Assembly: GCF_020535545.1 (NCBI RefSeq)
Contig: NZ_CP084754.1
Span: forward strand, 62,001-126,000
Direction: 5' to 3'
DNA length: 64,000 nucleotides
From: Roseateles sp. XES5
GTDB lineage: Bacteria; Pseudomonadota; Alphaproteobacteria; Rhizobiales; Rhizobiaceae
Shown here: positions 19,219 through 48,633 of the stretch, one piece after another
Position numbering within the stretch: position 1 is the first letter of the stretch
Layout of the letters: each line of letters starts with the position of its first letter
Program-made: the position numbers and the translations under genes
The notes under the pieces: generated by a model
The model's database searches: none
The model's input: the letters and a program-made list of their open reading frames with translations, nothing else
Told to the model about the DNA's origin: nothing

Positions 19219-19240
19219 GCCTGTTTCGCGGTGGGAAGGG

Positions 19241-20443: not shown

Positions 20444-20493
20444 GCCTTCCTCCCCTTCGTTTCTGCCTGCGTCACACCTGTGCGGGAATTGCT

Positions 20494-21456: not shown

Positions 21457-21568
21457 AAGTCCCTCCCAGACCCTGTTCCAGTCGCCCTCCCGGCGGCCGG
21501 AAATCACGAATAAACATGATGATAATCAAAAGCTTATCGTAACATCCGGGAATATCATACCAAATAGT

Positions 21569-21584
21569 TTGACCATTTGCTATG
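21569..21584. promoter_or_regulatory. RutR-like half-site in the divergent promoter
   Basis: TTGACCA at 21569-21575 matches one arm of the known RutR box (TTGACCAnnTGGTCAA). The second arm here is degenerate (TGCTATG). A wider inverted repeat, ATAG at 21564-21567 with CTAT at 21580-21583, is centred on the same place. The RutR-like TetR gene at 27806 makes it a reasonable operator candidate, not a proven one. Confidence 0.35.
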
Positions 21585-21623
21585 AATTTGTTTATCTAAC
21601 CTCGGAGGAAGAGGAGGAGCAAG

Positions 21624-21677
21624 ATGGAGTTTCTGTCAGCAACAGGTATCCCTGGCGGCACGGAGGCTTCGCGATGA
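21624..21677 (+). CDS. Possible 17-residue leader peptide coupled to creatininase
   Basis: An ATG at 21624 follows the strong ribosome site GGAGGAAGAGGAGG and opens a 17-codon frame (MEFLSATGIPGGTEASR) that ends with TGA at 21675-21677. The TGA overlaps the ATG of the creatininase gene (ATGA at 21674-21677). The ribosome site is better than that of the creatininase itself, so initiation here followed by translational coupling is likely. No conserved family is known to match it. Confidence 0.4.
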   Translation: MEFLSATGIPGGTEASR

Positions 21678-22474: not shown

Positions 22475-22475
22475 C

Positions 22476-23300: not shown

Positions 23301-24135
23301 TCCGGCTGCCGCCGACAGCGAAATCGTCGATCCGCGCATCCTTTTCGAACGCCGCGAGCGGCGCCTGCGCGTCATCATGCCCATCGTCTCGATCCTCGCG
23401 GTCCTCTGTCTGTGGGAATTCCTCGTCTGGTACAACGAGGTGCCGCACTATCTCATCCCCGCGCCGAGCCTGATCGCCAAGACGCTGGTGCAGGACTGGT
23501 CCTCGCTGATGCAGAGCGCGGCCTTCACGGTGAAGCTGACGCTGCTGTCGCTGAGCCTTGCGATCATCGGCGGCGTACTGCTCGGCATGCTCTTCGCGCT
23601 GTCGCGCACGGTGGAAATGTGTCTCTTCCCGTTCGCCGTCATCCTGCAGGTAACGCCGATCATCGCCATCGCACCGCTGATCCTCATCTATGTCAGCAAC
23701 ACCTTCTTCGCGCTGCTCATCTGCGCCTGGATCGTCGCCTTCTTCCCGATCCTGTCGAACACGGCGATCGGCCTGCGCAGCGCCGACCATAACCTGCGCG
23801 ACATGTTCCGCCTCTACCAGGCGACGCCCTGGCAGCGCCTGCGCTATCTGCTGATCCCCTCGGCGCTGCCCTATTTCATGGCGGCCCTGAAGATCGCCGG
23901 CGGTCTCTCGCTGATCGGCGCGGTCGTCGCCGAATTCGTCGCCGGCACGGCGGGCCAGAACACCGGCCTTGCCTCGCGCATCCTCGAATCGAGCTTCCGC
24001 AACGAAATCCCGCGCATGTTCGCCGCGCTGTTCCTCGTCTCGGTGCTCGGCGTCGGCATCTTCCTCGTCACGTCCTGGCTGTCGAACCTCGTGCTCGGCC
24101 ACTGGCACGAAAGCGAAATCAAGCGCGAGACGTGA
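23281..24135 (+). CDS. ABC transporter permease (TauC/SsuC type)
   Basis: This 284-residue permease has about six helices. The coupling loop contains NLRDMFRLYQATPWQRLRYLLIPSALPYFMAALK, and the next segment SLIGAVVAEFVAGTAGQNTGLASRI is the hallmark of the family. Its ATG lies inside the end of the ATPase gene, and its own TGA overlaps the GTG start of the amidohydrolase gene, so the three are translationally coupled. The N-terminus carries about 35 charged residues before the first helix. Confidence 0.92.
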   Translation: MSISTIDPAAADSEIVDPRILFERRERRLRVIMPIVSILAVLCLWEFLVWYNEVPHYLIPAPSLIAKTLVQDWSSLMQSAAFTVKLTLLSLSLAIIGGVLLGMLFALSRTVEMCLFPFAVILQVTPIIAIAPLILIYVSNTFFALLICAWIVAFFPILSNTAIGLRSADHNLRDMFRLYQATPWQRLRYLLIPSALPYFMAALKIAGGLSLIGAVVAEFVAGTAGQNTGLASRILESSFRNEIPRMFAALFLVSVLGVGIFLVTSWLSNLVLGHWHESEIKRET

Positions 24136-25352
24136 GCGCCATGCGGACCGCTGACAACACCATCGCCGATGCCGGCGCCGGCGGAGCGCGCCTTGCCGGC
24201 GTCCGTATCGCCGGCCGGGACGGCCATTGGGATATCGCCATCCGGGGCGGCCGCATCGCGGCCCTCGATCCCTCCACGGAGAGGGACGGCGGCCTCGTCC
24301 TGCCGCTGATGGCCGATATCCACACCCATCTCGACAAGACCTTTACCGCGTCGCGCATGCCGGCCCGCGCCACCTCGCTGTTCCATGCCATCGAAATGAT
24401 GCAGGCCGACGCCGCGCGCTGGGATCATGTCGACCTCACCCTGCGGGCCGGCCGAGGGCTGGACCGGGCATATCGCCACGGCACGGCGCTGATGCGCAGC
24501 CATGTCGACTGGTATGGCGCAACGCCGCCGGCAGGATGGCATGTGCTGCGCGATCTTGCCGGCGAATGGCGGGGCCGCGTCGATCTGGAACTTGCTTCCC
24601 TGACACCGCTCGACCTCTTCGCCGAGGTGGGCGAGGCCATCGCCCGCGAGGTCAAGGCGGCCGGCGGCGTGCTCGGCGCCTTCATCTATCGCAACGACGA
24701 TCTCGAAGCGCGGCTCGCCGCGGTCTTCGACCTTGCCGAAAAGCACGATCTCCCGCTCGATTTCCATGTCGACGAGGGACTGGACATCGAGGCGCGCGGC
24801 ATCGATGCCATCGTGGCAGAGACCGAGCGACGCGGCCTTGCCGGCCGGGTGCTGTGCGGCCATGGCTGCGCGCTATCGGTGCGCGATCCAGACGAGGTCG
24901 CGGGAATTCTCGCCCGCGCGGGCGCCGCAGGCGTCGGCCTCACGGTGCTGCCCGGCTGCAACGCCTATCTCCAGGACGCCAGGGCCGGCCGCACGCCGCG
25001 CCTGCGCGGCCTTGCGCCCCTGCACGAGGCGCGCGCCGCCGGGCTGGAGGTGATGATCGGTTCGGACAATGTGCGCGACGCCTTCTTCCCCTTCGGCGAC
25101 TACGACCTTTTCGACGCCTTCCGCGGCGCGGTCCTCCTCGGCCACCTTCAGCCCGAGGATTGGCTGAACGCGGTGAGCGAGGCGCCGGCCCGCTGGATGG
25201 GCCGGAGCCTGGCGCTTGCCGAGGGCGGCCCCGCCGATTTCATCCGGCTCGACGCCGAGGACCTGACCGATGCCCTGAGCCGCCCCCGTGCCGACCGCGC
25301 GGTCTGGCGCAACGGCCGCATCCTGACCGATCACCAAGGAGAACAGACATGA
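24132..25352 (+). CDS. Cytosine-deaminase-like amidohydrolase
   Basis: This 406-residue protein belongs to the amidohydrolase superfamily of the CodA type. Metal ligands are His64 and His66 in ADIHTHLDKTF, with HVDEGLD, GHGCALS and SDNVRDAFFPFGDYD supplying the later His and Asp. CodA relatives deaminate cytosine, creatinine or isoguanine, and some hydrolyse other ring amides. Its location between the TauC-like permease and the FAD oxidase points to a role in the same catabolic route as the creatininase. The listed start is GTG, overlapping the permease stop; an ATG 9 bases later is also possible. Confidence 0.88.
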   Translation: MSAMRTADNTIADAGAGGARLAGVRIAGRDGHWDIAIRGGRIAALDPSTERDGGLVLPLMADIHTHLDKTFTASRMPARATSLFHAIEMMQADAARWDHVDLTLRAGRGLDRAYRHGTALMRSHVDWYGATPPAGWHVLRDLAGEWRGRVDLELASLTPLDLFAEVGEAIAREVKAAGGVLGAFIYRNDDLEARLAAVFDLAEKHDLPLDFHVDEGLDIEARGIDAIVAETERRGLAGRVLCGHGCALSVRDPDEVAGILARAGAAGVGLTVLPGCNAYLQDARAGRTPRLRGLAPLHEARAAGLEVMIGSDNVRDAFFPFGDYDLFDAFRGAVLLGHLQPEDWLNAVSEAPARWMGRSLALAEGGPADFIRLDAEDLTDALSRPRADRAVWRNGRILTDHQGEQT

Positions 25353-26716
25353 CCGGACACCGCGACTGGGCGTCGATCAAGGCGGCGCTGAACGGCATTC
25401 GCGCCCATGACGACGAGAACTACATCGCCGCACGTTCGCGCGATTACTTCTGGTACAGCCCGATCCTCAACGAGCAGCTGAAAGACAAGCTCGGCGAACT
25501 GATCGTCGTGCCGCAGAACATCGAGGAGGTCGTGCATGTCGCCTCCGTCGTCGCGCGTCACAAGGTTCCGCTGACGCTGCGCGGCGGCGGCACCGGCAAT
25601 TACGGCCAGTGCGTGCCGCTGGAGGGCGGCATCGTCATGGATCTCACCCGTCTCGACCGGGTGATCGAGATCACCGACGGCCATGTGCGCGTCGAAGCGG
25701 GCGCCCGCATCTCGCGGCTCGACGATGCCGCGCACGAGACCGGCCAGGAACTGATGATGTATCCCTCGACGCGCCAGATGGCGACCATCGGCGGTTTCGT
25801 CGCCGGCGGCTCGGGCGGCATCGGCTCGCTGCGCCACGGCATGCTGCGCGATCCCGGCAATCTCACCTATGCCAAGGTCGTCACCGTCGAGCCGGAACCG
25901 CAGGTGATCGAACTCTTCGGCGAGGACGTGCAGAAGGTACAGCACGCCTATGGCACCAACGGCATCGTCGTGGAACTCGGCGTCGGCCTCACCCGCGCGA
26001 CGGACTGGATCCACACCGCGGCGCTTTTCGACGGTTACGATGCCGCGCTGCGCTTTGCCAGCGACGCGCAGGAAAAGGGCCTCGACTGCTACCTGCTGAC
26101 CACCGTCGAGCGCCGCTTCGCGCCCTTCTACAACAAGCTCGGCGATCTCTTCCCGGCCGATCGCGACGCGGTCTTCGCCATGGTCGCGCCGGAGGAAATG
26201 GCCCGCTTCACCGCCGAGGCCGAGGCCCATGGCGGGCGCATCTCCTTTGCCATGAGCAAGCCGGAAATCCGCGCCGCCGGTCTTCAGCCCGCCTATGAAT
26301 GCGGCTGGAACCACACCACGCTGCAGGCCCTCAAGGCCGACAAGAGCTGGACCTATCTCCAGGTCGCCTATCCGCGCCCCTTCGATCCCGAACTGGTGCT
26401 CCGCCAGATGGCCCGCTACGGCGAGGAAATCTACTGGCACCACGAGATGGCGCGCATGGACGGCGAGGTGCAGATCTTCGCCCTGCCGCTGGTGCGCTAT
26501 CGCGGCGAGGAAGCCATGTACAAGCTCATCGCCGAGCTCGAGGAAACGGACGGCTGCACGATCTTCGATCCCCATGTCGTGACCATCGAGGACGGCGGCA
26601 TGAAGCAGATCGACCAGACGCAGATCGAATTCAAGAAACGCGCCGACCCGTATGGCCTGATGAACCCCGGCAAGACCCGGGGCTGGACCGACGGCATGGC
26701 CCGCACCGATATCTGA
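25349..26716 (+). CDS. FAD-binding oxidoreductase (PCMH/VAO type)
   Basis: The 455-residue flavoenzyme has the PCMH-type FAD domain: LIVVPQNIEEVVHVASVVARHKVPLTLRGGGTGNYGQCVPLEGG, the pyrophosphate loop, then GQELMMYPSTRQMATIGGFVAGGSGGIGSLRHG and GTNGIVVELGVGL. The C-terminus ends with DPYGLMNPGKTRGW, as in lactate/glycolate oxidase relatives. It probably oxidises a hydroxy acid or an amine-bearing intermediate; the acceptor is unknown, and the ferredoxin in this cluster is a candidate partner. The ATG overlaps the preceding stop by 4 bases, after AAGGAG. Confidence 0.88.
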   Translation: MTGHRDWASIKAALNGIRAHDDENYIAARSRDYFWYSPILNEQLKDKLGELIVVPQNIEEVVHVASVVARHKVPLTLRGGGTGNYGQCVPLEGGIVMDLTRLDRVIEITDGHVRVEAGARISRLDDAAHETGQELMMYPSTRQMATIGGFVAGGSGGIGSLRHGMLRDPGNLTYAKVVTVEPEPQVIELFGEDVQKVQHAYGTNGIVVELGVGLTRATDWIHTAALFDGYDAALRFASDAQEKGLDCYLLTTVERRFAPFYNKLGDLFPADRDAVFAMVAPEEMARFTAEAEAHGGRISFAMSKPEIRAAGLQPAYECGWNHTTLQALKADKSWTYLQVAYPRPFDPELVLRQMARYGEEIYWHHEMARMDGEVQIFALPLVRYRGEEAMYKLIAELEETDGCTIFDPHVVTIEDGGMKQIDQTQIEFKKRADPYGLMNPGKTRGWTDGMARTDI

Positions 26717-26739
26717 GATAGCAAAAGGGGAGAACTTCC

Positions 26740-27750
26740 ATGAAGCGCATGACAAGTCTTTTCGCCGCCGTGGGCCTGCTGCTCGCCGCCGGCTCGTCCT
26801 GGGCGGCCGACAAGGTCGTCTTCGGCACCAACTGGCTGGCCCAGGGTGGCCACGGCGGCTTCTACCAGGCCGTGGTGGACGGCACCTATGCCAAATACGG
26901 CCTCGACGTCGAGATCAAGATGGGCGGCCCGCAGGTCAATACCCGGCCGATGCTGCCGGCCGGCCGGCTCGACTTCCTGATGGGCGGCAACCTGCTGCTC
27001 GCCTTCGACAACGTGCGCAACGGCATTCCGACCACCGTCGTCGCGGCGATCTTCCAGAAGGACCCGCAGGCCTTCATGGCGCACAAGGGTGAATATGCCG
27101 ATTTCGCGGCGCTCACCAACGCGCCCTCCATCCTCGTTTCCAAGGACGGCCAGTTCAGCTTCTGGCAGTGGATGGTCACCCGTCTCGGCTTCAAGGACGA
27201 GCAGCTTCGCCCCTACGGCTTCAACCTCGCGCAGTTCCTGAGCGACAAGAAGATGGTGCAGCAGGCCTATGGCACGGCCGAGCCGCTCTATGCCGCGAAG
27301 GAAGGCGCCGACGTCGACGTGTTCCTGCTCGCCGATCAGGGCTGGAGCACCTATGGCTCGATCATCGAAACGCGCAGCGAACTGGTCGAGAAGAACCCCG
27401 ACCTCGTGCAGCGCTTCCTCGACGCTTCCATCGAGGGCTGGAACAACTACCTCTACGGCGACCGCAAGGCGGCCTATGAGGCGATCATCGCCGCCAATCC
27501 AGAAATGACGGTCGAAAAGCTCGACGCCGAAATGGCGCAGTTCGACAAGCTGCAGATCATCGATTCCGGCGATGCCGTGGAAAAGGGCATCGGCGCGATG
27601 AGCGCCGAGCGCATCAAGGCCTTCCATGACCTTGCCGTCGAAAGCAAGATCATCGAGGCTGGCTCGGTCGACCTCTCCAAGGTCGCCGACACGCGCTTCG
27701 TCAACAAGGGCAAGGGCCTCGACATCAAGGCCAAGCTGACGGGCAAGTAA
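26740..27750 (+). CDS. ABC transporter substrate-binding protein (NMT1/THI5/TauA type)
   Basis: This 336-residue exported binding protein has a signal peptide (MTSLFAAVGLLLAAGSSWAAD). The NMT1-like fold shows in VVFGTNWLAQGGHGGFYQAVVDGTYAKYGLDVEI, MLPAGRLDFLMGGNLLLAFDNVRNGIP and KDGQFSFWQWMVTRLG. Proteins of this type bind thiamine pyrimidines, sulfonates, nitrate or riboflavin. It completes the importer whose ATPase and permease lie about 3 kb upstream. A GC-rich hairpin follows its stop. Confidence 0.92.
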   Translation: MKRMTSLFAAVGLLLAAGSSWAADKVVFGTNWLAQGGHGGFYQAVVDGTYAKYGLDVEIKMGGPQVNTRPMLPAGRLDFLMGGNLLLAFDNVRNGIPTTVVAAIFQKDPQAFMAHKGEYADFAALTNAPSILVSKDGQFSFWQWMVTRLGFKDEQLRPYGFNLAQFLSDKKMVQQAYGTAEPLYAAKEGADVDVFLLADQGWSTYGSIIETRSELVEKNPDLVQRFLDASIEGWNNYLYGDRKAAYEAIIAANPEMTVEKLDAEMAQFDKLQIIDSGDAVEKGIGAMSAERIKAFHDLAVESKIIEAGSVDLSKVADTRFVNKGKGLDIKAKLTGK

Positions 27751-27761
27751 CCGAAACCCCG

Positions 27762-27782
27762 GGCCGGCGCCACGCGCCGGCC
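27762..27782 (+). terminator. Short hairpin after the binding-protein gene
   Basis: A perfect 9-bp stem with the 3-base loop cac lies between the binding-protein gene and the TetR gene. There is no T-run, so it may stabilise the upstream message or attenuate transcription rather than stop it fully. Confidence 0.5.
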
Positions 27783-27805
27783 TGCTCTCCATCGCCAGGA
27801 CCGCC

Positions 27806-28423
27806 ATGAGCACTGTTCAGAAAAAGCGCAAGGAAATCCACGCCGCGATCCGCAATGCCGCGATCCAGGAATTCGCACGCAACGGCCTGTCGGGGACCTC
27901 CACCCAGGCGATCGCCCAGACGGCCGGCATCACCAAGGCGCAGCTTCACTACTACATCACCTCGAAGGAAGAGCTGTACCAGGATGTGCTGAGCGACATC
28001 GTGGAGGCCTACAAGGACATCTTCTTCCTCTCCGCCTCGCGCGACGATCCGGCGCTGGCGATCACCCAGTATATCGAGCGCAAGGTGCGCCATACGCTGG
28101 AATTCCCGGATCTCTCGCGCTTCTTCGCCAACGAGATCGCCCGCGGCGCGCCGGAAATGACGCCGCACTGGGGCGCGCTGAAAGCCGCCGTCGAGGAAGC
28201 GAATGCCGTCATCCAGCAATGGGTGGACAGCGGCAAGATCGCACCGGTCGATCCGCTGCTCTTCCAGATGAACATCTGGGCCGTGACCCAGCACTATGCC
28301 GAATACGAGGCGCAGGCCCGCGTGCTGATGGGCAAGCCCGACGACGAACCGCTCGACGCGGAGCGCATCATCGCCGAGGCGAGCCAGCTTTTCCTGCGCC
28401 GCTGCGGATTGAAGGAGGCCTGA
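27806..28423 (+). CDS. TetR family regulator, RutR-like
   Basis: This 205-residue regulator has an N-terminal TetR helix-turn-helix (AAIQEFARNGLSGTSTQAIAQTAGITKAQLHYYITSKEELY). Its ligand domain is like that of RutR (LSRFFANEIARGAPEM, NIWAVTQHYAEYEAQ). RutR senses uracil or thymine and controls pyrimidine degradation. Here it sits inside an operon with ring hydrolases and a RidA gene, so it probably senses the imported heterocycle or a product. A half-match to the RutR box lies in the operon promoter. Confidence 0.88.
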   Translation: MSTVQKKRKEIHAAIRNAAIQEFARNGLSGTSTQAIAQTAGITKAQLHYYITSKEELYQDVLSDIVEAYKDIFFLSASRDDPALAITQYIERKVRHTLEFPDLSRFFANEIARGAPEMTPHWGALKAAVEEANAVIQQWVDSGKIAPVDPLLFQMNIWAVTQHYAEYEAQARVLMGKPDDEPLDAERIIAEASQLFLRRCGLKEA

Positions 28424-28427
28424 AACG

Positions 28428-29149
<722 letters not shown>

Positions 29150-29635
29150 TCACGCCTTGCCCTTCAGGTGCCCGGTCGGCAGCGCCGTCGTGTACTTGAT
29201 CTGGCTGAGGGCGAAGCTGGAGCGGATATTGGCGACACAGGGAATGAGCGTCAGGAAATCCACCACCAGCGCCTGGAATTTCGACAGATCCTCCACGACG
29301 ACGCGCAGCATGTAATCCGCCTCGCCCGTCATCAGGTAACATTCGACGATCTCCGGTTTGGTGCGGATGGCCGCGTCGAAAATATCCAGCGATTGCCGGT
29401 CCTGCTGCTTGAGCGAGACCTGCACGAAGACATTGACCGCCAGCCCCAGCGAGGGCGCATCGACCAGCGCCACGGAGCCCTTGATGACGCCGCTTTCCTT
29501 CAGCTCGTTGACGCGTCGCCAGCAGGGAGACGCCGAAAGGCCGGTCGCCTCCGCAAGCTCCGCAACGCTCATCTCGGCGTTCTGCTGGAGGAGGTCGAGA
29601 ATGCGGATGGAGGCGGCATCCAAGGAATGAGGCAT
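29150..29635 (-). CDS. Lrp/AsnC family transcriptional regulator
   Basis: This 161-residue regulator has an N-terminal winged helix (LDAASIRILDLLQQNAEMSVAELAEATGLSASPCWRRVNELKESGVI) and a C-terminal RAM/AsnC effector domain (VECYLMTGEADYMLRVVVEDL). It is divergent from the E1-type dehydrogenase gene and presumably controls it in response to an amino acid or keto acid. ATG at 29635 begins the conserved domain; the longer frame to 29803 lacks sense. In Pseudomonas putida an Lrp-type gene (mdeR) is linked to an E1-type gene (mdeB) in a similar way. Confidence 0.92.
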   Translation of the reverse strand: MPHSLDAASIRILDLLQQNAEMSVAELAEATGLSASPCWRRVNELKESGVIKGSVALVDAPSLGLAVNVFVQVSLKQQDRQSLDIFDAAIRTKPEIVECYLMTGEADYMLRVVVEDLSKFQALVVDFLTLIPCVANIRSSFALSQIKYTTALPTGHLKGKA

Positions 29636-29766
29636 GATTGACCGGAATTTTGCGAAGAACCGGTAAAACCATTCGCAAAATCCACCAAGAAGGTCAACTG
29701 AGATCAGTTTTTTCCGGGAACGGGGTGTAGAATTTCTGCGGAATGGGAAGTGAGGAGCAAGACACC

Positions 29767-32166
29767 ATGACGAAGCCGGCCGTATCGCCTGCGACCCTGG
29801 CATGCCTGAAGGATCTGGAACGACAGGTCCTGTGGCACGCCTGCTGGATGATCCACAATGCCAACCATCTGCGCGAGAAGGGCGAGGTGAAGGTCGGGGG
29901 GCACCAGGCCTCCTCCGCTTCGCTCGCCGCGATCATGACCGCGCTCTACTTCCATGTGCTGCGGCCGGAAGACCGCGTGGCCGTCAAGCCGCATGCTTCC
30001 CCCGTCTTCCACGGCATCCAGTATGTCATGGGCAACCAGACGCGCGAAAAGCTTGAGAATTTCCGCGGCTTCGGCGGCGCGCAGTCCTATCCGAGCCGCA
30101 CCAAGGATATCGACGACGTCGATTTCTCGACCGGCTCCGTCGGTCTTGGCGTCGCCATCACCGCCTTCGCCTCCATCGTGCAGGACTACATCGCCGCCAA
30201 ACAATGGTCGAAGCGCCCCGAGGGCCGCATGATCGCGCTGGTGGGCGATGCCGAACTCGACGAGGGCAACATCTACGAGTGTCTGCAGGAAGGCTGGAAG
30301 CATGACCTTCGCAACACCTGGTGGGTGATCGACTACAACCGCCAGAGCCTCGACGGCGTGGTGCGCGAAGGCCTGTGGCAGCGCATCGAGGGCATCTTCA
30401 CCGCCTTCGGCTGGGACGTGAAGGTGCTGAAATACGGCGCATTGCAGGAAGCCGCCTTCAAGGAGCCGGGCGGCGAGGCGCTGCGCGGCTGGATCGACCG
30501 CTGCCCGAACCAGCTCTATTCGGCCCTCACCTTCCAGGGCGGCGCAGCCTGGCGCAAGCGCCTCACCGACGAGATCGGCACGGAGCCGGGTGTTGCCGCG
30601 CTGCTCGCCGCGCGCAGCGACGACCAGCTCTCCGACCTCATGAACAATCTCGGCGGCCACTGCCTGGAAACGCTGATCCGTACCTTCGAGAGCATCGACC
30701 ACGACCGGCCGACCGTCTTCCTCGCCTATACGATCAAGGGCTGGGGCACGCCGCTGGCCGGTCACAAGGACAACCATGCCGGCCTGATGACCAAGGCGCA
30801 GATGGAAACCTTCCAGACCCGCATCGGCGTCAAGTCCGGCGAAGAATGGGACACGTTCGGCGCAATCTCCTCGCCCGAGCCGGTGCGCGCCTTCCTGAAG
30901 TCCGTACCCTTCTTCGCCGAAGGTGCACGGCGCTTCTCCTCGCCCGCCGTCGCCACGCCCGGTCCGGTCTTCCTCGACGACCGGGAGCTTTCCACGCAGG
31001 CCGGCTTCGGCAAGATCCTCGACGCGCTTGCCCAGCGAAACGACGCACTTGCCGCACGCATCGTCACCACCGCACCCGACGTCACGGTCTCGACCAATCT
31101 CGGCCCCTGGGTCAACCGGCGCGGCCTCTTCGCCCGCGGCAAGCTGGCCGATACGTTCCGCGACGAGCGCGTGCCCTCGGCACAGAAATGGGAGTTCGGC
31201 CCGGCCGGCCAGCATATCGAGCTGGGCATCGCCGAAATGAACCTCTTCCTGCTGCTCGGTGCGGCAGGGCTTTCCCACTCGCTGTTCGGCGAGCGGCTGC
31301 TGCCCATCGGCACGGTCTACGATCCCTTCGTGGCGCGTGGCCTCGATGCGCTCAACTACGCCTGCTACCAGGACGCCCGCTTCATGATCGTCGGCACGCC
31401 CTCCGGCGTGACGCTGGCCCCGGAAGGCGGCGCGCACCAGTCGATCGGCTCGCAGCTCATCGGGATGAGCCAGGACGGGCTGGCGAGCTTCGAACCCGCC
31501 TATCTCGACGAGCTCTCGGTCATCATGGACTGGTCGTTCGACTATATGCAGCGCGACGGTGGCGGCACGCATGACACGCGCACCTGGCTTCGCGATGGCA
31601 CCGGCGGCTCGGTCTATCTGCGCCTCACCACCCGGCCGCTGGAGCAGATCGCACTGCGCCGCGAGGACCCGGCCTTCCGGCAGGGTGTGATCGACGGGGC
31701 TTACTGGCTGCGCGCGCCGTCCGCCCGCACCCGTATCGTGCTCGCCTATCAGGGCTGCGTGGCGCCGGAAGTGCTGATGGCGGCCGGGCAGCTTGCCGAG
31801 GCGCATGGCGATGTCGCGGTTCTCGCCGTCACCTCCGCCGACCGGCTGAATGCCGGCTGGACGGCGGCGCAGCGCGCCCGTCGCCATGGCGACGCCAGCG
31901 CCTGCAGCCATATCGAAGCGCTGTTCGACGATGTCTCGCGCGCCGCGACCGTCATCACCGTCACCGACGGGCACCCCGCGACGCTCGGCTGGCTCGGCTC
32001 GGTCCAGGGCCATCGGACGATCTCGCTCGGCGTCGAGCATTTCGGCCAGACCGGCACCATCGCCGATCTCTATGCCCATTTCGGCATCGACACCCACGCC
32101 ATCATCGAAGCGGCGGACTCCGTCCTCCGTGTCGAGGCGCAGCCGCGCCGGGCCGGCGCGGCCTGA
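29767..32166 (+). CDS. AceE-like homodimeric 2-oxoacid dehydrogenase E1 / transketolase family
   Basis: This 799-residue protein has the thiamine diphosphate and Mg2+ motif GDAELDEGNIYECLQEGWKH followed by VIDYNRQ, plus the pyrimidine-domain stretch ELGIAEMNLFLLLGAAGLS. Length and layout match homodimeric E1 enzymes such as AceE. No lipoyl E2 or E3 gene is visible nearby, so it is an orphan E1. The closest described arrangement is MdeB with an Lrp regulator, where the E1 handles 2-oxobutyrate from methionine; no methionine gamma-lyase is visible here. ATG at 29767 is preceded by GAGGAGC; a longer frame starts at 29743. Confidence 0.85.
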   Translation: MTKPAVSPATLACLKDLERQVLWHACWMIHNANHLREKGEVKVGGHQASSASLAAIMTALYFHVLRPEDRVAVKPHASPVFHGIQYVMGNQTREKLENFRGFGGAQSYPSRTKDIDDVDFSTGSVGLGVAITAFASIVQDYIAAKQWSKRPEGRMIALVGDAELDEGNIYECLQEGWKHDLRNTWWVIDYNRQSLDGVVREGLWQRIEGIFTAFGWDVKVLKYGALQEAAFKEPGGEALRGWIDRCPNQLYSALTFQGGAAWRKRLTDEIGTEPGVAALLAARSDDQLSDLMNNLGGHCLETLIRTFESIDHDRPTVFLAYTIKGWGTPLAGHKDNHAGLMTKAQMETFQTRIGVKSGEEWDTFGAISSPEPVRAFLKSVPFFAEGARRFSSPAVATPGPVFLDDRELSTQAGFGKILDALAQRNDALAARIVTTAPDVTVSTNLGPWVNRRGLFARGKLADTFRDERVPSAQKWEFGPAGQHIELGIAEMNLFLLLGAAGLSHSLFGERLLPIGTVYDPFVARGLDALNYACYQDARFMIVGTPSGVTLAPEGGAHQSIGSQLIGMSQDGLASFEPAYLDELSVIMDWSFDYMQRDGGGTHDTRTWLRDGTGGSVYLRLTTRPLEQIALRREDPAFRQGVIDGAYWLRAPSARTRIVLAYQGCVAPEVLMAAGQLAEAHGDVAVLAVTSADRLNAGWTAAQRARRHGDASACSHIEALFDDVSRAATVITVTDGHPATLGWLGSVQGHRTISLGVEHFGQTGTIADLYAHFGIDTHAIIEAADSVLRVEAQPRRAGAA

Positions 32167-32183: not shown

Positions 32184-32212
32184 AAAGGGCGGTGCCGATG
32201 GCGCCGCCCTTT
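32184..32212. terminator. Bidirectional terminator between convergent genes
   Basis: A 9-bp stem AAAGGGCGG/CCGCCCTTT (32184-32192 with 32204-32212) is nested with an inner GCC/GGC pair. The A-rich and T-rich arms allow termination in both directions between the E1 gene and the DppF-like gene. Confidence 0.75.
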
Positions 32213-32217
32213 TGCGT

Positions 32218-32967
32218 TCAGCCGTTGCGGCGGAAGCCTTCGCTCGCCGTGAGCAATCCGCGGGTATAGTCCGCGTTCACCTTGCGGGTGGCGAGGTCGC
32301 CGGAGGCCAGTTCCTCGACCGCGCGGCCGCCGCGCATCACCAGCAGGCGCTCGCACATATGCGTGACCACGCCCAGGTCGTGGCTCACCATCAGGAAGGA
32401 GAGGCCGCGCTCGCGGCGCAGCGCCTCCAGCAGGTTCAGCACCTCGGCCTGCACCGAGGCGTCCAGCGCCGAGGTGGGCTCGTCCAGCAGCAGGATCTGC
32501 GGCTCCAGGATCAGGGCTCGCGCGATGGCGATGCGCTGGCGCTGGCCGCCGCTGAGCTGATGCGGATAACGGAAGCGAAAGCCCTGGCCCAGGCCCACCT
32601 CGTCGAGCGCGCGGCGGATGCGTGCCTCCGCATCGGGCATGCCGTGGATGGCCAGGGGCTCGGCCAGGATGCGGTCCACCGTGTGGCGCGGGTGCAGGGA
32701 ACCGTAGGGGTCCTGGAACACCATCTGCACTTTGCGATAGAAGGCCTTGTCGCGTTTTTCACCGAGCGGCTTGCCGTCCATCGTGATCGTGCCGGCGGAA
32801 ACCGGCGCAAGGCCCGCCACGGCGCGCAGGAGCGTCGACTTGCCCGAGCCGGACTCGCCGACGAGCCCGAAGGATTCACCCGGCGCGACCTTGAGACTGA
32901 CATCGTCCAGCGCCACGAAATCGTCGTAGGCGACGCCGAGGCCGTCGATGGCGAGAGCCGGCGTCAT
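32218..32967 (-). CDS. Peptide ABC transporter ATP-binding protein, DppF type (cluster 1)
   Basis: This 249-residue ATPase has Walker A GESGSGKST, MVFQDPYGSLHPRHTV (Q-loop of the DppF/OppF group), signature LSGGQRQRIAIARAL, Walker B ILLLDEPTSALD and switch MVSHDLGVV. It pairs with the DppD-type ATPase just upstream. ATG at 32967 overlaps that gene's stop (ATGA). The segment from about 32340 to 32730 has GTG/CTG/GCC-heavy codons unlike the ends of the same gene. Confidence 0.93.
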   Translation of the reverse strand: MTPALAIDGLGVAYDDFVALDDVSLKVAPGESFGLVGESGSGKSTLLRAVAGLAPVSAGTITMDGKPLGEKRDKAFYRKVQMVFQDPYGSLHPRHTVDRILAEPLAIHGMPDAEARIRRALDEVGLGQGFRFRYPHQLSGGQRQRIAIARALILEPQILLLDEPTSALDASVQAEVLNLLEALRRERGLSFLMVSHDLGVVTHMCERLLVMRGGRAVEELASGDLATRKVNADYTRGLLTASEGFRRNG

Positions 32968-33812
32968 GTTCTCCACTCCGGTTTGCGGTCGAGCACCGGC
33001 AGCGGATGCCTGTCGGCGCCGATCTCGGGCATGCAGTTGAGAAGACCCCTCGTATAGGGATGCTTGGCCTCGGAAAGCTGTGTCGCCGGCAGTTCCTCGA
33101 CGATGCGGCCGGCATACATGACGATGACGCGGTCGCAGAAAGACGAAACGAGGCGCAGGTCGTGCGAGATGAAGATCAATCCCATGCCGCGCTCGACGAC
33201 GAGACGGTCGAGGATGGCGAGCACGTCGAGCTGCACCGTCACGTCGAGCGCCGAGGTCGGCTCGTCGGCGATCAGGAGTTCCGGACCGGCGATCAGCATC
33301 ATGGCGATCATGGCGCGCTGTCCCATGCCGCCCGAAACCTCGTGCGGGTAGAGATCGAAGACGCGCTCGGGGTCACGGATCTGCACGGCGGCCAGCATGT
33401 CGAGCGCGCGCTTGCGCGCCTCCGCGCGGCCGACCGGCTCGTGGGCGCGCAGCGTCTCGACGATCTGGCGGCCGATGGTCATGACCGGGTTCAGCGAATA
33501 TTTCGGATCCTGCAGGATCATGGCGATGCGCTTGCCACGCAAAGCCCGCCGCTCGGCCTTCGAGGCCTTGAGAAGGTCGATGCCGTTGAAGTCGAGGCGC
33601 TTTGCGTCGATGACGCCGTGTTCGGCGGTGAGGCCCAGGATGGCGCGGCCGGTCTGCGACTTGCCGGAGCCCGACTCGCCCACGATGCCCAGGCGCTCCT
33701 GGCCCAGGCTGAAGCTCACACCGCGCACGGCCTCGAATACGCCGCCGTCGCGGGTGGGGAAGCTGACCCGCAGGTCATCGACCTCGAGCAGGGGAGATGT
33801 AGCGTCGCTCAT
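32964..33812 (-). CDS. Peptide ABC transporter ATP-binding protein, DppD type (cluster 1)
   Basis: This 282-residue ATPase has Walker A GESGSGKSQ (last residue Gln where Ser/Thr is usual), Q-loop AMILQDPKYSLNPVM, signature VSGGMGQRAMIAMML, Walker B LLIADEPTSALD and FISHDLRLV. It has the C-terminal HPYTRGLL peptide-transporter motif. The gene is coupled by ATGA junctions to DppC upstream and DppF downstream. Its first roughly 50 codons (about 33655-33800) share the foreign-looking codon use, whereas the middle and end match the host. Confidence 0.92.
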   Translation of the reverse strand: MSDATSPLLEVDDLRVSFPTRDGGVFEAVRGVSFSLGQERLGIVGESGSGKSQTGRAILGLTAEHGVIDAKRLDFNGIDLLKASKAERRALRGKRIAMILQDPKYSLNPVMTIGRQIVETLRAHEPVGRAEARKRALDMLAAVQIRDPERVFDLYPHEVSGGMGQRAMIAMMLIAGPELLIADEPTSALDVTVQLDVLAILDRLVVERGMGLIFISHDLRLVSSFCDRVIVMYAGRIVEELPATQLSEAKHPYTRGLLNCMPEIGADRHPLPVLDRKPEWRT

Positions 33813-34717
33813 TTCTTGGGATCCAGCGCGTCGCGCAGGCCGTCGCCCAGCAGATTGAAGGCCAGGCTGACGACGAAGATGGCCAGGCCCGGCCCCGCGG
33901 CCACCCACCACTGGTCCAGCACATACTGGCGGCCGGCGGCGATCATGGCGCCCCATTCGGGCAGCGGCGGCTGGGCGCCCAGGCCCAGAAAGCCCAGGCC
34001 GGCGGCGGTGAGGATGATGCCGGCCATGTCCAAGGTGACACGCACGATCACCGAGGGCAGGCACAGGGGCATGATGTGGCGCAGCACGATGCGGCTGTGC
34101 GAGGCGCCCACCAGCTGCACGGCGGCGATGTAGTCGGCCTGGCGGATGGTGAGGGTCTCGGCGCGCGCGATGCGGGCATAGGGCGGCCAGGAGGTCAGGG
34201 CGATGGCCAGCACCGCGTTCTCGATGCCGGGCCCCAGGGCGGCCACAAAGGCCAGGGCCAGGATCAGTCGCGGGAAGGCCAGGAAGATGTCGGTGATGCG
34301 CATCAGCGCCGCATCGATCCAGCCGCCGCGATAGCCGGCCACCGTGCCCACGATCAGGCCGATGGGCGCGGCCAGCACAGCCACCAGCACCACCACGAAG
34401 AGCGTGATGCGCGAGCCGTGGATCAGACGCGAGAGGATGTCGCGGCCCTGGTCATCGGTGCCGAACCAGTGCCCCGGCCCCGGCGTCAGCAGGCGCGACT
34501 TGGCGAGGTCACCGACATAGGGCGAATGGGGCGCCAGCAGCGGCGCGAAAACCGCGAGGAAGACGAGGCCGAGGATGATGAGAAGGCCGAGCACGGCGAG
34601 CCGGTTGGCCGTGAAGCGCCGCCAGGCGACATAGGCGCGGCCAAGCCGGGCCTGCAGGCGGGACTGCGGCCGGTCGGTCAGGAGCCATTCGCGGCGGGTC
34701 ATGGTCGTTTCGCTCAT
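33809..34717 (-). CDS. Peptide ABC transporter permease, DppC type (cluster 1)
   Basis: This 302-residue permease has an N-terminal cytoplasmic arm, six helices, HWFGTDDQGRDILSRLIHGSR and the coupling loop VQLVGASHSRIVLRHIMPLCLPSVIV. About 33819-34500 has strong GTG/CTG/GCC codon bias, while the first 70 codons look native. The last 263 bp (33819-34081) are identical to 46627-46889 in the second DppC-type gene, although the two proteins differ clearly outside that stretch. Confidence 0.93.
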   Translation of the reverse strand: MSETTMTRREWLLTDRPQSRLQARLGRAYVAWRRFTANRLAVLGLLIILGLVFLAVFAPLLAPHSPYVGDLAKSRLLTPGPGHWFGTDDQGRDILSRLIHGSRITLFVVVLVAVLAAPIGLIVGTVAGYRGGWIDAALMRITDIFLAFPRLILALAFVAALGPGIENAVLAIALTSWPPYARIARAETLTIRQADYIAAVQLVGASHSRIVLRHIMPLCLPSVIVRVTLDMAGIILTAAGLGFLGLGAQPPLPEWGAMIAAGRQYVLDQWWVAAGPGLAIFVVSLAFNLLGDGLRDALDPKK

Positions 34718-35787
34718 CGTGTCCTCGTGCGCGGGTCGAGCAGGCGGTACAGCAGATCGGACAAGAGATTCAGGGCGATGAAGATGGAGCCCACCACCAG
34801 GGTGCCGCCCAGCACCGCGTTCATATCGGCGTTCTGCAGCGAGTTGGTGATGTACAGGCCCAGGCCCGGCCAGGCGAAGACGGTCTCGGTCAGCACCGAG
34901 CCCTCCAGCAGGCCGGCGTAGGAGAGCGCGATCACGGTGACCAGGGGCACCATGGCATTGCGCAGGGCGTGGCGCCAGACGATGCGCGCCTCCGACAGGC
35001 CCTTGGCACGCGCCGCGATCACATACTCCTGGCTCAGCTCATTGAGCATGAAGCTGCGCGTCATGCGGCTGATATAGGCCAGCGAGAAGTAGCCCAGCAG
35101 GGCGCCCGGCAGGGCCAGGTGGGAAAGCGCATTGAAGAAGGGCTCCCAGCCATTGCCCTCGAAGCCGCCCAGGGCGGTGTCCACCAGCATCAGGCCGGTG
35201 ACCGGCGTGATGCTGTATTCGAAGGCCACGTCGATGCGCCCCGGCCCGGCCACCCAGTCCAGCTTGGCATAGAAGACCACCAGGGCCATCAGGCCCAGCC
35301 AGAAGATGGGCACGGAGTAGCCGATCAGGCCCATCACCCGCACCGCCTGGTCGGCCAGACCGCCGCGCCGCACCGCGGCCCAGACGCCCAGCGGCACGCC
35401 CAGGCCGGCGCCCAGGATGATGCCCACCGTGGCCAGCTCCAGGGTGGCGGGGAAGACCCGGCCGATGTCCTGCAGCACCGGGTTGGCGGTGAGGATGGAG
35501 GTGCCGAAATCGCCCTGGGCGATCTTGGTGAGGTAGATCCAGAACTGCTCCCAGAGCGGCTTGTTGAAGCCCATCTCCTCGCGCACGCGCTGGATCACAT
35601 GCTCGGGTGCGCGGTCGCCCACGATGGCCAGCACCGGGTCGACCGGCACCACCCGACCGATGAAGAAGGTGACGGCCAGCAGACCCAGATAGGTGGTGGC
35701 GACGACGACGAGGAAGCCGGCCACCGCCTTCAGCCGTGCATGGGCGCGCCGGTTGGCGCGCCGCACGGGCTTTGCGGTTTCAGTCAT
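34714..35787 (-). CDS. Peptide ABC transporter permease, DppB type (cluster 1)
   Basis: This 357-residue permease has six helices and typical motifs: FFIGRVVPVDPVLAIVGDRAP, the EAA-type loop RAKGLSEARIVWRHALRNAMVPLVTVI and ETVFAWPGLGLYI. ATG at 35787 is given; a TTG two codons upstream (35793) with AAGGA before it is an alternative. Its stop overlaps the DppC start. Nearly the whole gene (about 34735-35690) has the foreign codon pattern, while the basic N-terminus returns to native use. Confidence 0.92.
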   Translation of the reverse strand: MTETAKPVRRANRRAHARLKAVAGFLVVVATTYLGLLAVTFFIGRVVPVDPVLAIVGDRAPEHVIQRVREEMGFNKPLWEQFWIYLTKIAQGDFGTSILTANPVLQDIGRVFPATLELATVGIILGAGLGVPLGVWAAVRRGGLADQAVRVMGLIGYSVPIFWLGLMALVVFYAKLDWVAGPGRIDVAFEYSITPVTGLMLVDTALGGFEGNGWEPFFNALSHLALPGALLGYFSLAYISRMTRSFMLNELSQEYVIAARAKGLSEARIVWRHALRNAMVPLVTVIALSYAGLLEGSVLTETVFAWPGLGLYITNSLQNADMNAVLGGTLVVGSIFIALNLLSDLLYRLLDPRTRTR

Positions 35788-35799
35788 GCTCAAGGAAGA

Positions 35800-37452
35800 T
35801 CATTCCTTGGAGACGGGTGCGAGCGGGTTCGAGTCGAAGCTCGGACCGAGCCTGTAACCCTTGACCTTGCCGCGCACGCCCGCCACTTCGATCTGCTGGA
35901 AGATCATGACGAAGGGGCTGGTGTCGAGCGCTTCCTGCTGGAGCTTCTTGTACATCTCGGCGCGCTTGTCGGCGTCACGCTCAAGAAGCGCGGCCTTCGC
36001 CTCGGCCGTCAGCTCGGGGATGTCCCAGGCATTGCGCCAGGACAGGGGCTTGGCGTTGGCGCTGTCGCTGTTGTCCGGGTTGCGGGCAAAGGTGTCGGCA
36101 TTGGTGTGCGGGTCCCAGTAGTCGGTGCCCCACTGGCCGATGTAGATGTCGTGCTGACGGGCGCGGTACTTGGTCAGGGTCTGCTTGCCGTCGCCGGGGA
36201 TGATCTCGATGTCGATGCCGGCGCGCTTGGCGGTCTGCTGGAAGTTCTCGGCGATGCCCTGCACCGGCTGCACGGTGCGCATGTCGATGCTGACCTTGAA
36301 GCCATTGGGCAGGCCGGCCTTGGCCAGCAGGCCCTTGGCCTTGTCCACGTCCAGCTTGAAGGGGTTCTCGGTGCTGGCGCCCAGCAGACCCACGGGCAGG
36401 AAGTTCTGGTGCACGCGGCCGATGTGCTGGATCAGGGTCTTGCCGATGCCCTCGTAGTCCACCAGGTACTTCATGGCTTCACGCACCTCGGGCTTGGCGA
36501 GGTTGGCGTTCTTCATATTGAAGCTCATGTAGAAGACCGTGCCCTTGGGCTGGGTGGCGATCTTCACGTCCTTGCTCTCGGCCAGGGCGCTCACGTCCTG
36601 GGGCGCCAGGTTGCGGGCGATGTCGATATCACCCTTCTCCAGCAGCAGGCGCTGGGTGGCGGCTTCCTTCACGTGACGGTAGATCACGCGCGCCAGCGGG
36701 GCCTTGGCGCCCACGCTGTAGTTGGGGTTGCGCTCCAGGGCGATGATCTCGTTGGCGCGCCACTCGCGCAGCTTAAAGGGGCCCGAGCCGGCGTAATTGG
36801 TCTTGAGCCAGCCGTAGCCCATATCGGTGTCGTACTTGTACTCGTCGCTCGGCGTGGTGGCAGCAGCGTGTTCCATCACCAGCTTCTTGTCGAGCACGGC
36901 GCCGACGGTGGCGGTGAGGCAGTTCAGCACGAAGCTCGGCGCGTAGGGCTTGTCCACGGTGAAGACGAAGGTCGTCTCGTCGACGGCCTTGGCCTTCTCG
37001 GCGACGTTCTCGCCCGTCAGGCCGAACTGGGTGAGGATGAAGGCGGGGCTCTTGTCGAGCTTGACGACGCGCTCGAAGGACCAGGCGACATCCTCGGCGG
37101 TAACAGGGTTGCCGGAGGCGAACTTGATGCCCGGCTTCAGCTTGAACGTATAGGTGAGGCCGTCGTCGGAAACGGTCCAGCTGTCGGCGACGCCGCCCTT
37201 GACCTTGGTCGTGTCGTCGATGTCGAGACGCACCAGCATGTCATAGGCGTTGCCGATGAATTCGGCCGGCGACAGCTCGAAGGATTCCGCCGGGTCGAGC
37301 GTGATCGTGTCGTCGATCGCCCAGGCCTGGACGAGCGTGTCGGCCGGCGTTTCGGCGAAGGCCGGCGCCATGCCGCCCGAGACGAGCAGCATCGAGAAGG
37401 CCGCGCCGGCGAGCAGCGGGCGAATGCGCGTCGTGATCTTTTCCCTGTTCAT
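35800..37452 (-). CDS. Peptide ABC transporter substrate-binding protein, DppA type (cluster 1)
   Basis: This 550-residue exported binding protein (family 5) has a signal peptide ending near APAFAE. Typical segments are LKPGIKFASGNPVTAEDVAWSFERVV, NYAGSGPFKLREWRANE and REAMKYLVDYEGIG. It is the first gene of the minus-strand operon BCDF. The two ends have native codon use, but about 36010-36890 switches to the GTG/CTG/GCC-rich pattern, so the gene is a compositional sandwich. Cargo is probably peptides; another family-5 ligand is possible. Confidence 0.93.
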   Translation of the reverse strand: MNREKITTRIRPLLAGAAFSMLLVSGGMAPAFAETPADTLVQAWAIDDTITLDPAESFELSPAEFIGNAYDMLVRLDIDDTTKVKGGVADSWTVSDDGLTYTFKLKPGIKFASGNPVTAEDVAWSFERVVKLDKSPAFILTQFGLTGENVAEKAKAVDETTFVFTVDKPYAPSFVLNCLTATVGAVLDKKLVMEHAAATTPSDEYKYDTDMGYGWLKTNYAGSGPFKLREWRANEIIALERNPNYSVGAKAPLARVIYRHVKEAATQRLLLEKGDIDIARNLAPQDVSALAESKDVKIATQPKGTVFYMSFNMKNANLAKPEVREAMKYLVDYEGIGKTLIQHIGRVHQNFLPVGLLGASTENPFKLDVDKAKGLLAKAGLPNGFKVSIDMRTVQPVQGIAENFQQTAKRAGIDIEIIPGDGKQTLTKYRARQHDIYIGQWGTDYWDPHTNADTFARNPDNSDSANAKPLSWRNAWDIPELTAEAKAALLERDADKRAEMYKKLQQEALDTSPFVMIFQQIEVAGVRGKVKGYRLGPSFDSNPLAPVSKE

Positions 37453-37580
37453 TCCAGTTCCCCGTTTTCCACGATTGTCCTTGTGGCGCCCGGTGTTCCG
37501 AAACGCCATTTTCGAAATTCAATCATACTATTGAGGGCAAATATAGTCCCCCTGCCCTATCATTCCCGACTGCTAAAACA

Positions 37581-44949: not shown

Positions 44950-45016
44950 GCCCTGCCCTTCCGTCGCTGCGATTCTCGCGGCGGATATTGGTCAAAGCCC
45001 GTGGGCATGGCAACTC

Positions 45017-45760
45017 TCACGCGCCGGAAAGCGTGCTGCGATGGCTCGCCTTAAAGAGCGTGCGGGTATAGTCGGCCTGCATGTCCCCGGCGCGCAACTG
45101 TTCGCGGGTCAGCGTTTCCACGGGCGAAGCGTTCTGCATCACCATCAGCCGGTCGCACATATAGGAAATGACCGCGAGATCGTGGCTGACGATGACGAAG
45201 GTCAGGTCCAGTTCCCGCCGCAACCGATTGAGCAGGTTGAGGATTTCCGCCTGTACGGAAACATCGAGCGCCGAAGTCGGCTCGTCGAGCAGGAGAAGGC
45301 GCGGCGACAGCGAAAGCGCGCGGGCAATCGCCACGCGCTGGCGCTGGCCACCGGAAAGCTCGTGGGGAAAGCGGAAGCGGTGCGCCGCCGTCAGACCGAT
45401 CATCTCCAGCAGTTCGACCGTGCGGCCGTCGGGGTCCGGCAGGCGGTTGATGCGCATCGGCTCGGCGATGGCCTGCCCGATCGTGTAGCGCGGGTGGAGC
45501 GAGGCATAGGGGTCCTGGAACACCATCTGGGCAAGACGGACCAGCTCCGCCCGCCGCCCCTTGCGCAGGTCGATGCCGCCGAGGCTGACGTCGCCCGTCC
45601 AGCTGCGGTTGAGGCCCATGAGGGTGCGCAGCACGGTGGATTTGCCCGAGCCGCTTTCGCCGACGAGGCCAAAACTCTCGCCCGGCGCCACGGAGAGACT
45701 GAGGTCGCGGACGGCAACGGCGCTGCCGAAGCGCACGGTGAGGTTTTCAATGCGGATCAT
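45017..45760 (-). CDS. Peptide ABC transporter ATP-binding protein, DppF type (cluster 2)
   Basis: This 247-residue ATPase has Walker A GESGSGKST, MVFQDPYASLHPRYTIGQA, signature LSGGQRQRVAIARAL, Walker B LLLLDEPTSALDV and FVIVSHDLAV. It couples by an ATGA overlap to the DppD-type gene upstream, and the D-aminopeptidase gene follows 67 bp later. Codon use is native throughout, in contrast to the cluster 1 copy. Confidence 0.93.
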   Translation of the reverse strand: MIRIENLTVRFGSAVAVRDLSLSVAPGESFGLVGESGSGKSTVLRTLMGLNRSWTGDVSLGGIDLRKGRRAELVRLAQMVFQDPYASLHPRYTIGQAIAEPMRINRLPDPDGRTVELLEMIGLTAAHRFRFPHELSGGQRQRVAIARALSLSPRLLLLDEPTSALDVSVQAEILNLLNRLRRELDLTFVIVSHDLAVISYMCDRLMVMQNASPVETLTREQLRAGDMQADYTRTLFKASHRSTLSGA

Positions 45761-47510: not shown

Positions 47511-47519
47511 GGCAGCCTC

Positions 47520-48569: not shown

Positions 48570-48596
48570 GACCGCGCTCCGGTTTCTGACTGGCGA

Positions 48597-48623
48597 GCGG
48601 CGCCGGGCTAGGCCCGGCGCCGC
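48597..48623 (-). terminator. Attenuating hairpin between the binding-protein and DppB genes
   Basis: A perfect 12-bp GC stem (48597-48608 with 48612-48623) has a 3-base loop. It sits directly after the binding-protein gene inside the operon and has no T-run, which suits message stabilisation or partial termination. Confidence 0.6.
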
Positions 48624-48633
48624 TTCGCGCTTC

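What the first reader, a model, noticed from the sequence alone, without database searches (positions are those of the whole stretch)
32340..36890. Foreign-looking codon patches inside peptide-importer genes
Within cluster 1 the segments about 32340-32730, 33655-33800, 33819-34500, 34735-35690 and 36010-36890 switch to GTG/CTG/GCC-dominated codons of a Burkholderiales-like flavour. The gaps between them match the rest of the window. Borders fall inside genes, and the affected segments are mainly the conserved cores. Two explanations fit: mosaic homologous recombination with a distant donor, or consensus contamination by reads of another organism at conserved sites.
Basis: seen in the sequence. 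Interest (0 to 1): 0.72.

Follow-up and report, generated by a model that had tools for sequence, protein, structure and literature searches.

The report
Another bacterium's reads overwrote genes
The foreign patches in this peptide-importer operon are real in the deposited sequence but are almost certainly an assembly error: DNA reads of a different bacterium (a Roseateles, sequenced in the same project) replaced conserved stretches of a Shinella genome, so no unusual biology is needed and the genome record needs checking.

Summary
The window lies in a Shinella-backbone genome (contig C3). Four tracts of the five-gene dpp/opp-like operon (402-937 bp, 2,960 bp in all) are 90.5-92.8% identical to a Roseateles genome and 74-81% to the closest Shinella; the stretches between are 83-92% Shinella and 65-70% Roseateles. 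Local horizontal transfer does not explain this. Tracts of the same donor type occur on the chromosome in clpX, lon, acnA, hslU and malate synthase G (mostly 93-99% to R. asaccharophilus), and in the one 16S rRNA gene found: nt 1-225 Rhizobiaceae, the rest nearly identical to Roseateles. Replacement follows local Shinella-Roseateles similarity. All six contig lengths equal those that a 2021 announcement lists for "Kinneretia (Roseateles) sp. XES5", sequenced beside Shinella sp. XGS7 and polished with medaka and Pilon; its table is inconsistent for these two strains. Best explanation: Kinneretia/Roseateles reads overwrote conserved parts of a Shinella consensus, probably during polishing. Not a real biological feature. 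Reads could not be mapped here.

The parts
36042..36822 (-). foreign tract 1 (781 bp) inside the substrate-binding protein gene (35800-37509)
   Evidence: HMM segmentation: Shinella L015 73.9%, Roseateles L179 91.8%, L180 86.3%
34750..35686 (-). foreign tract 2 (937 bp) covering most of the DppB-like permease gene (34714-35793)
   Evidence: L015 76.9%, L179 90.5%, L180 88.0%; closest protein P0001 is 98% identical over 94% of the query, and the next hits that carry an organism name are Roseateles (P0005, P0006) and Paucibacter (P0014)
33633..34472 (-). foreign tract 3 (840 bp) from inside the DppC-like permease gene (33809-34717) across the gene border into the start of the DppD-like ATPase gene (32964-33812)
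   Evidence: L015 80.5%, L179 91.5%, L180 95.8%
32330..32731 (-). foreign tract 4 (402 bp) inside the DppF-like ATPase gene (32218-32976)
   Evidence: L015 79.9%, L179 92.8%, L180 95.0%
36823..37470 (-). native (Shinella) stretch, first part of the binding protein gene (37470 is where the alignment begins, not a border)
   Evidence: L015 92.4%, L179 69.3%
35687..36041 (-). native stretch, end of the binding protein gene and start of the DppB-like gene
   Evidence: L015 88.7%, L179 66.5%
34473..34749 (-). native stretch, end of the DppB-like and start of the DppC-like gene
   Evidence: L015 88.1%, L179 67.9%
32732..33632 (-). native stretch, most of the DppD-like gene and start of the DppF-like gene
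   Evidence: L015 90.7%, L179 69.8%
32210..32329 (-). native stretch, 3' end of the DppF-like gene (32210 is where the alignment ends)
   Evidence: L015 82.8%, L179 65.2%

Best explanation
The backbone is a real Shinella genome; the patches are not in the living organism. During consensus making, reads of a co-sequenced Roseateles (Kinneretia sp. XES5 or a near twin) aligned to the parts of the Shinella contigs where the two genera are most alike and outvoted or replaced the Shinella bases, leaving Roseateles sequence in conserved islands and Shinella sequence elsewhere. The most likely step is short-read polishing (Pilon, 300-base MiSeq reads) with a wrong or mixed read set, perhaps after a mix-up of the two isolates' files. 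Shown: the mosaic, its single donor lineage in the loci compared, its spread to chromosomal genes and a 16S rRNA, its dependence on local similarity, and the match of all six contig lengths to the paper's table. Inferred: that reads caused it, that Pilon was the step, and that files were swapped. The figure below (0.95) is for an artefact of any step; about 0.7 for polishing as the step. In the native organism the operon is presumably an ordinary peptide/opine-type ABC importer.
For: (1) Same donor type elsewhere in the genome: clpX is 96% identical to G041 (the genome of L036, R. asaccharophilus DSM 25082) over 1,164 bp and 79% to Shinella G001; foreign tracts, mostly 93-99% to G041, in lon and acnA, hslU and malate synthase G (these genes named). 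(2) The one 16S gene found: nt 1-225 follow Rhizobiaceae (80 diagnostic sites against 12), nt 226-1503 follow Roseateles G041 (249 against 1) (recounted in 77). I would not expect a living alphaproteobacterium to carry this chimera. (3) Foreign share rises with local Shinella-Roseateles identity: 93 foreign and 79 native windows, AUC 0.80. (4) The mosaic binding protein is matched in full only by the entry on the window's own 733,869-bp contig among the 120 listed of 7,819 hits. (5) Contigs of 4,026,671, 895,176, 733,869, 102,922, 33,339 and 18,961 bp, total 5,810,938, equal Table 1 of PMC8675264 for Kinneretia XES5. That paper sequenced XES5 beside Shinella XGS7, names K. asaccharophila DSM 25082 and Kinneretia DAIF2 as XES5's nearest genomes, and polished with medaka and Pilon. 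(6) The sampled genome (2.25 Mb) is 64.4% GC, near the paper's value for Shinella (64), not for XES5 (68).
Against: No raw reads could be inspected. Native stretches show no clear frameshift: in about 21 kb aligned to Shinella, tracts included, non-triplet indels are mostly paired or lie outside genes or upstream of likely starts (judged by eye), so they do not look like unpolished nanopore sequence, as a complete read swap might predict. Some tract interiors are only 51-58% identical to native Shinella per 90-100 bp, which needs local reassembly or walking, not simple read alignment. Some similar stretches are untouched: two ~100-bp islands of acnA where the genome is native yet 79-83% like Roseateles, part of the DppD-like gene, and a 2.5-kb stretch of C1 (fusA, by recall) that is 71% like Roseateles. 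The table gives CheckM contamination 0.39% and the paper says all sequences circularised. Homologous recombination would also favour similar stretches, so point (3) alone does not decide. The test of border homology is inconclusive: runs identical in both parents are 0-14 bp across the 29 borders as placed, but within 40 bp of 6 of them there is a run of 20-31 bp. Identity of the operon tracts to G041's operon is uneven (73-97% per 150 bp); the exact donor genome was not in hand.
Confidence: 0.95

Rival explanations
1. Real mosaic homologous recombination: Shinella took up Roseateles DNA, for example by natural transformation, and exchanged several short tracts within the operon.
For: Clean tracts with open frames in all five genes, the same gene order in donor and recipient, and exchange at the more similar stretches; 6 of 29 borders have an identical run of 20-31 bp within 40 bp.
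Against: Would also have to replace conserved parts of clpX, lon, acnA, hslU, malate synthase G and most of a 16S rRNA, across two classes of Proteobacteria, from one donor lineage and recently. None of 13 Shinella operons shares the mosaic, nor does any other listed protein hit. An organism of the donor lineage was sequenced in the same project.
Confidence: 0.02
2. Same artefact, different step (this share lies inside the 0.95 above): mixed long reads, from a contaminated culture or barcode cross-talk, made the chimeric consensus in Trycycler or medaka, before any short-read polishing.
For: Tracts of up to 1,131 bp with low-identity interiors fit long alignments better than 300-base reads. 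An 18,961-bp plasmid is listed for both isolates in the paper's table, which may mean mixed DNA or mixed files.
Against: Tracts as short as 175-261 bp separated by native stretches of a few hundred bp are hard to get from reads with N50 near 14-15 kb.
Confidence: 0.25
3. Ordinary within-genome codon heterogeneity or normal divergence between Shinella species, read by eye as foreign.
For: GC content per 1 kb does not set the region apart.
Against: 13 of 13 Shinella operons drop together at the patches and the Roseateles operons rise there.
Confidence: 0.01

Closest known systems
Cross-sample or wrong-read polishing artefact (consensus contamination) in a hybrid bacterial assembly
   Same: Similar stretches carry another organism's sequence, dissimilar stretches are mostly untouched, frames stay open, and an organism of the donor lineage was sequenced in the same project with Pilon polishing.
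   Different: The donor is of another class, the tracts are long (up to about 1.1 kb) and numerous, and the completeness and contamination figures stayed clean. The general phenomenon is recalled; two literature searches aimed at it (listings only) returned no paper that I can cite as describing this pattern.
Mosaic genes from interspecies homologous recombination (recalled example: penicillin-binding protein genes of naturally competent bacteria)
   Same: Alternating recipient and donor tracts with open frames.
   Different: There, as recalled, the exchange is between close relatives, at selected loci, and shared by related strains; here it crosses classes, reaches 16S rRNA and housekeeping genes, and I found it in one assembly only.
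Dpp/Opp/Nik-type ABC importers of peptides, opines or metals
   Same: Gene order binding protein, two permeases, two ATPases; all five proteins match NCBIfam models of this kind. Orthologous operons lie in 13 Shinella genomes.
   Different: Among the listed models only Opp2C (DppC-like protein, 301.5 against a cut-off of 300 bits) passes its curated cut-off, and the proteins as deposited are chimeras, so the substrate cannot be named.

Membership tests
consensus contamination artefact | foreign tracts come from one identifiable second organism | tested here: met
   Roseateles G041/G045 fit the tracts best in the dpp operon, clpX, lon, acnA, hslU, malate synthase G and 16S; the exact donor genome was not in hand
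consensus contamination artefact | tracts scattered over the genome where the two organisms are similar | tested here: met
   donor share 6 of 40, 39 of 74 and 48 of 58 windows with rising similarity, in 10 genes: the five of the finding and five chosen for their composition runs
consensus contamination artefact | rRNA genes affected | tested here: met
   chimera in the one 16S gene found; the paper's table gives three rRNA operons for this size column, the others were not seen
consensus contamination artefact | second organism present in the same sequencing project | tested here: met
   Table 1 of PMC8675264
consensus contamination artefact | reads of the second organism support the tracts; mixed or clipped reads at borders | not testable with these tools
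   raw reads not available
mosaic homologous recombination | borders in stretches of identical sequence long enough for RecA | tested here: inconclusive
   identical runs of 0-14 bp across the 29 borders as placed, but 20-31 bp within 40 bp of 6 borders; proxies for donor and recipient were used
mosaic homologous recombination | mosaic limited to particular loci or shared by other strains | tested here: not met
   absent from 13 Shinella orthologs; only own contig among the 120 listed protein hits; found in other loci of the genome
Dpp/Opp ABC importer | binding protein, two permeases, two ATPases in one operon | tested here: met
Dpp/Opp ABC importer | all five proteins pass the curated cut-off of one named substrate family | tested here: not met
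   only the DppC-like protein passes (Opp2C, 301.5 vs 300 bits) among the listed models

The most novel reading that the evidence does not exclude
A living Shinella strain that has recently replaced conserved parts of many genes, including most of a 16S rRNA gene, with Roseateles DNA by cross-class homologous recombination during co-residence on frog skin.
Probability: 0.02. Interest if true: 0.95.

Novelty: not a real feature. Interest (0 to 1): 0.25.

Why it matters
The assembly stands for a species in the genome set searched here and shows completeness 100 and contamination 0.15. Yet the 16S rRNA gene found and the ten protein genes examined in full are chimeras that would mislead trees, transfer scans, k-mer classifiers and protein databases. 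Marker-based quality figures did not show it; an identity profile against two genera does.

Tried and rejected
Normal divergence or codon heterogeneity: rejected by the two-way profile. Transfer of the whole operon: rejected, since the gaps are Shinella. A second copy as donor inside the same genome: the longest other match in G000 is 70% over 3.35 kb. Small contigs as the donor genome: C5 and the sampled parts of C4 and C6 do not score like Roseateles beyond one run in C4. Second importer cluster of the window (45000-50500): best 70% to G001 and G003 and 71% to Roseateles, so its one compositional run cannot be judged. Residual nanopore errors in native stretches as a fingerprint of wrong-read polishing: none clear, inconclusive. 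Border homology as a test of recombination: inconclusive. Shinella 16S references: none found in four Shinella genomes, so an Ensifer 16S was used. The 5-mer scan alone was not taken as proof; one hit came from withheld letters (N) misread by my script, was dropped, and the script was corrected. My label 'prlC' in the notes and script output was wrong; the gene is malate synthase G. The 'internal stop' flags for four genes come from slices that I cut out of frame; the full frames are open stop to stop. One tract listed (12 bp) is too short to trust, and one border (end of the binding protein alignment) is an alignment end.
Full report
What the window is. The window is G000:C3:62001-126000 of a 5,810,938-bp genome in six contigs, given as the same genus as 20 of the 40 relatives searched. 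One of these, G001, has a 684,612-bp contig, the length of plasmid NZ_CP069304.1 of Shinella sp. PSBB067. The finding covers a five-gene operon on the minus strand: a substrate-binding protein (35800-37509), two permeases and two ATPases of the Dpp/Opp/Nik kind. Operons of the same order lie in the 13 Shinella genomes used here and in Roseateles and relatives.

The observation. A two-state segmentation with 13 Shinella and 3 Roseateles-type sequences gives four tracts: 36822-36042, 35686-34750, 34472-33633 and 32731-32330 (781, 937, 840 and 402 bp). Inside, identity is 73.9-80.5% to Shinella L015 and 90.5-92.8% to Roseateles L179; outside, 82.8-92.4% and 65.2-69.8%. A 5-mer model agrees. The DppB-like protein is 98% identical over 94% of its length to a metagenome protein (P0001), and the next hits with an organism name are Roseateles and Paucibacter. 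The mosaic binding protein has no equal among the 120 listed of 7,819 hits except the entry on the window's own 733,869-bp contig. Five other hits that I profiled are 90-100% identical in residues 31-210 and 40-90% per 30 residues in the patch.

Not a local event. I scanned 2,252,830 of 5,810,938 bases of the genome with the same model: all of C3, 1,020,000 of C1, 400,000 of C2 and 98,961 of C4-C6. It shows 21 runs in C3 and 33, 2 and 1 in the scanned parts of C1, C2 and C4, against none in 13 Shinella control loci (166,539 bases, but all around the same operon). Of 17 runs or groups of runs that I translated (16 in C1, one in C2), many lie in what look like conserved housekeeping genes; I named them by eye, and one search confirms ClpX, Lon, AcnA, HslU and malate synthase G. 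I compared these five with Shinella and Roseateles directly; they were chosen because they had runs. All five are mosaics: foreign tracts mostly 93-99% identical to G041, the genome of locus L036 (Roseateles asaccharophilus DSM 25082), and native stretches mostly 80-99% to Shinella. One stretch without any run (C1:20001-40000) is 92-94% Shinella over 18.5 of 20 kb, with one 279-bp match to G041 at 97% and one of 114 bp at 96%; two further matches (about 1.2 kb at 87% to both genera, 3.1 kb at 79% to G041) were not resolved. A 19.9-kb stretch of the window (10500-30400) shows no Roseateles match longer than 100 bp above 80% among the listed rows. These two serve as partial negative controls.

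The 16S gene. The SSU model found one gene in G000, with 21 of 147 candidates scored; the paper's table gives three rRNA operons for this size column, so others may have been missed. Aligned with Ensifer and Roseateles, its first 225 nt follow Rhizobiaceae (80 diagnostic sites against 12) and nt 226-1503 follow Roseateles G041 (249 against 1). A flank of the same locus is 88-100% identical to Roseateles G041 over 400 bases. The search found no SSU gene in four Shinella genomes.

What governs the tracts. Over ten genes, 75-bp windows are foreign in 6 of 40 cases where Shinella and Roseateles are less than 60% identical, in 39 of 74 at 60-75%, and in 48 of 58 at 75% or more (AUC 0.80). Complete tracts measure 175-1,131 bp, leaving aside one of 12 bp. 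Runs identical in both parents are 0-14 bp across the 29 borders as placed, but 6 borders have a run of 20-31 bp within 40 bp, so this does not exclude recombination. Frames remain open. This is what reads of a second organism would leave when they align wherever they can. Recombination also favours similar stretches, so the similarity alone is not decisive; the breadth, the single donor lineage, the chimeric rRNA and the origin of the genome are.

Where the genome comes from. The six contigs measure 4,026,671, 895,176, 733,869, 102,922, 33,339 and 18,961 bp. Table 1 of PMC8675264 (I read part 1 of 2 of the text, which holds the announcement and the table) lists exactly these numbers under 'Kinneretia sp. 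strain XES5', sequenced together with Shinella sp. XGS7 and Vogesella sp. XCS3 from Xenopus skin. Kinneretia now resolves to Roseateles. The paper gives XES5's nearest genomes as K. asaccharophila DSM 25082 (ANI 89.91) and Kinneretia DAIF2 (85.83), the two genomes that fit the patches best here; G045 has the 6,010,585-bp length of the contig behind the Roseateles sp. DAIF2 protein. Yet the backbone with these lengths is Shinella: its given relatives are Shinella and its sampled GC is 64.4%, near the paper's value for Shinella (64) and not for XES5 (68). The XGS7 column does not add up (4,025,507 + 69,886 + 18,961 = 4,114,354 against a stated 5,248,830), and an 18,961-bp plasmid is listed for both. 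The assemblies were made with Trycycler from nanopore reads and polished with medaka and Pilon; MiSeq 300-base reads were made. It appears that data of the two strains were mixed at least in the table, and possibly in the files.

Mechanism. The simplest account is that a Shinella long-read assembly was polished with reads that were wholly or mostly Kinneretia. Where those reads aligned, the sequence was rewritten; where they did not, it was left. Against a complete swap, I saw no clear uncorrected frameshift in about 21 kb, and tract interiors of 51-58% identity require local reassembly. A mixed long-read set is the main alternative within the artefact class.

Literature. Searches for the general artefact (listings only) gave no paper that I can cite as describing it. 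The search that led to the announcement was. A search for the strain names and accessions (7 papers) gave the announcement and one pond metagenome paper that names 'Shinella sp. XGS7' (one passage seen); the other five looked unrelated by their titles. I found no correction in these searches; most subscription journals are not in the library.

Verdict. It is of interest for database hygiene, not as biology.

Noticed in passing
G000:C1:1709827-1711329 (L287:1501-3003), outside the window: The one SSU rRNA gene found is a chimera: about 225 nt Rhizobiaceae, the rest nearly identical to Roseateles asaccharophilus.
   Followed up: yes
PMC8675264, Table 1: Sizes of the two isolates look exchanged or mixed: the XES5 column carries this Shinella-backbone genome, the XGS7 column does not sum, and an 18,961-bp plasmid is listed for both.
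   Followed up: partly
window 11851-12225: A Roseateles-like composition run in a stretch (about 11851-12573, by its paralogs an ABC transporter ATPase gene) that is 79% identical to G041 and G045 and at most 74% to G001; probably a further small patch.
   Followed up: partly
window 46501-46950: A compositional run in the second peptide-importer cluster; no close ortholog in G001 or G003, so not judged.
   Followed up: partly
G000:C3:247551-250000, outside the window: An RND-type efflux transporter gene that drops to about 55-88% identity per 100 bp with three Shinella copies, against 65-92% with a Comamonadaceae plasmid copy; probably the same artefact, not tested against Roseateles.
   Followed up: partly
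G000:C1:20001-40000 (L199:13976-14254): A 279-bp stretch is 97% identical to Roseateles G041 although the composition scan showed nothing there, so the number of patches is probably underestimated.
   Followed up: no
PMC12174113 (one passage): A pond study lists 'Shinella sp. XGS7' as enriched in sediment beside Rhizobacter and Rubrivivax; classification against a chimeric or mislabelled reference could produce this, but this was not tested.
   Followed up: no
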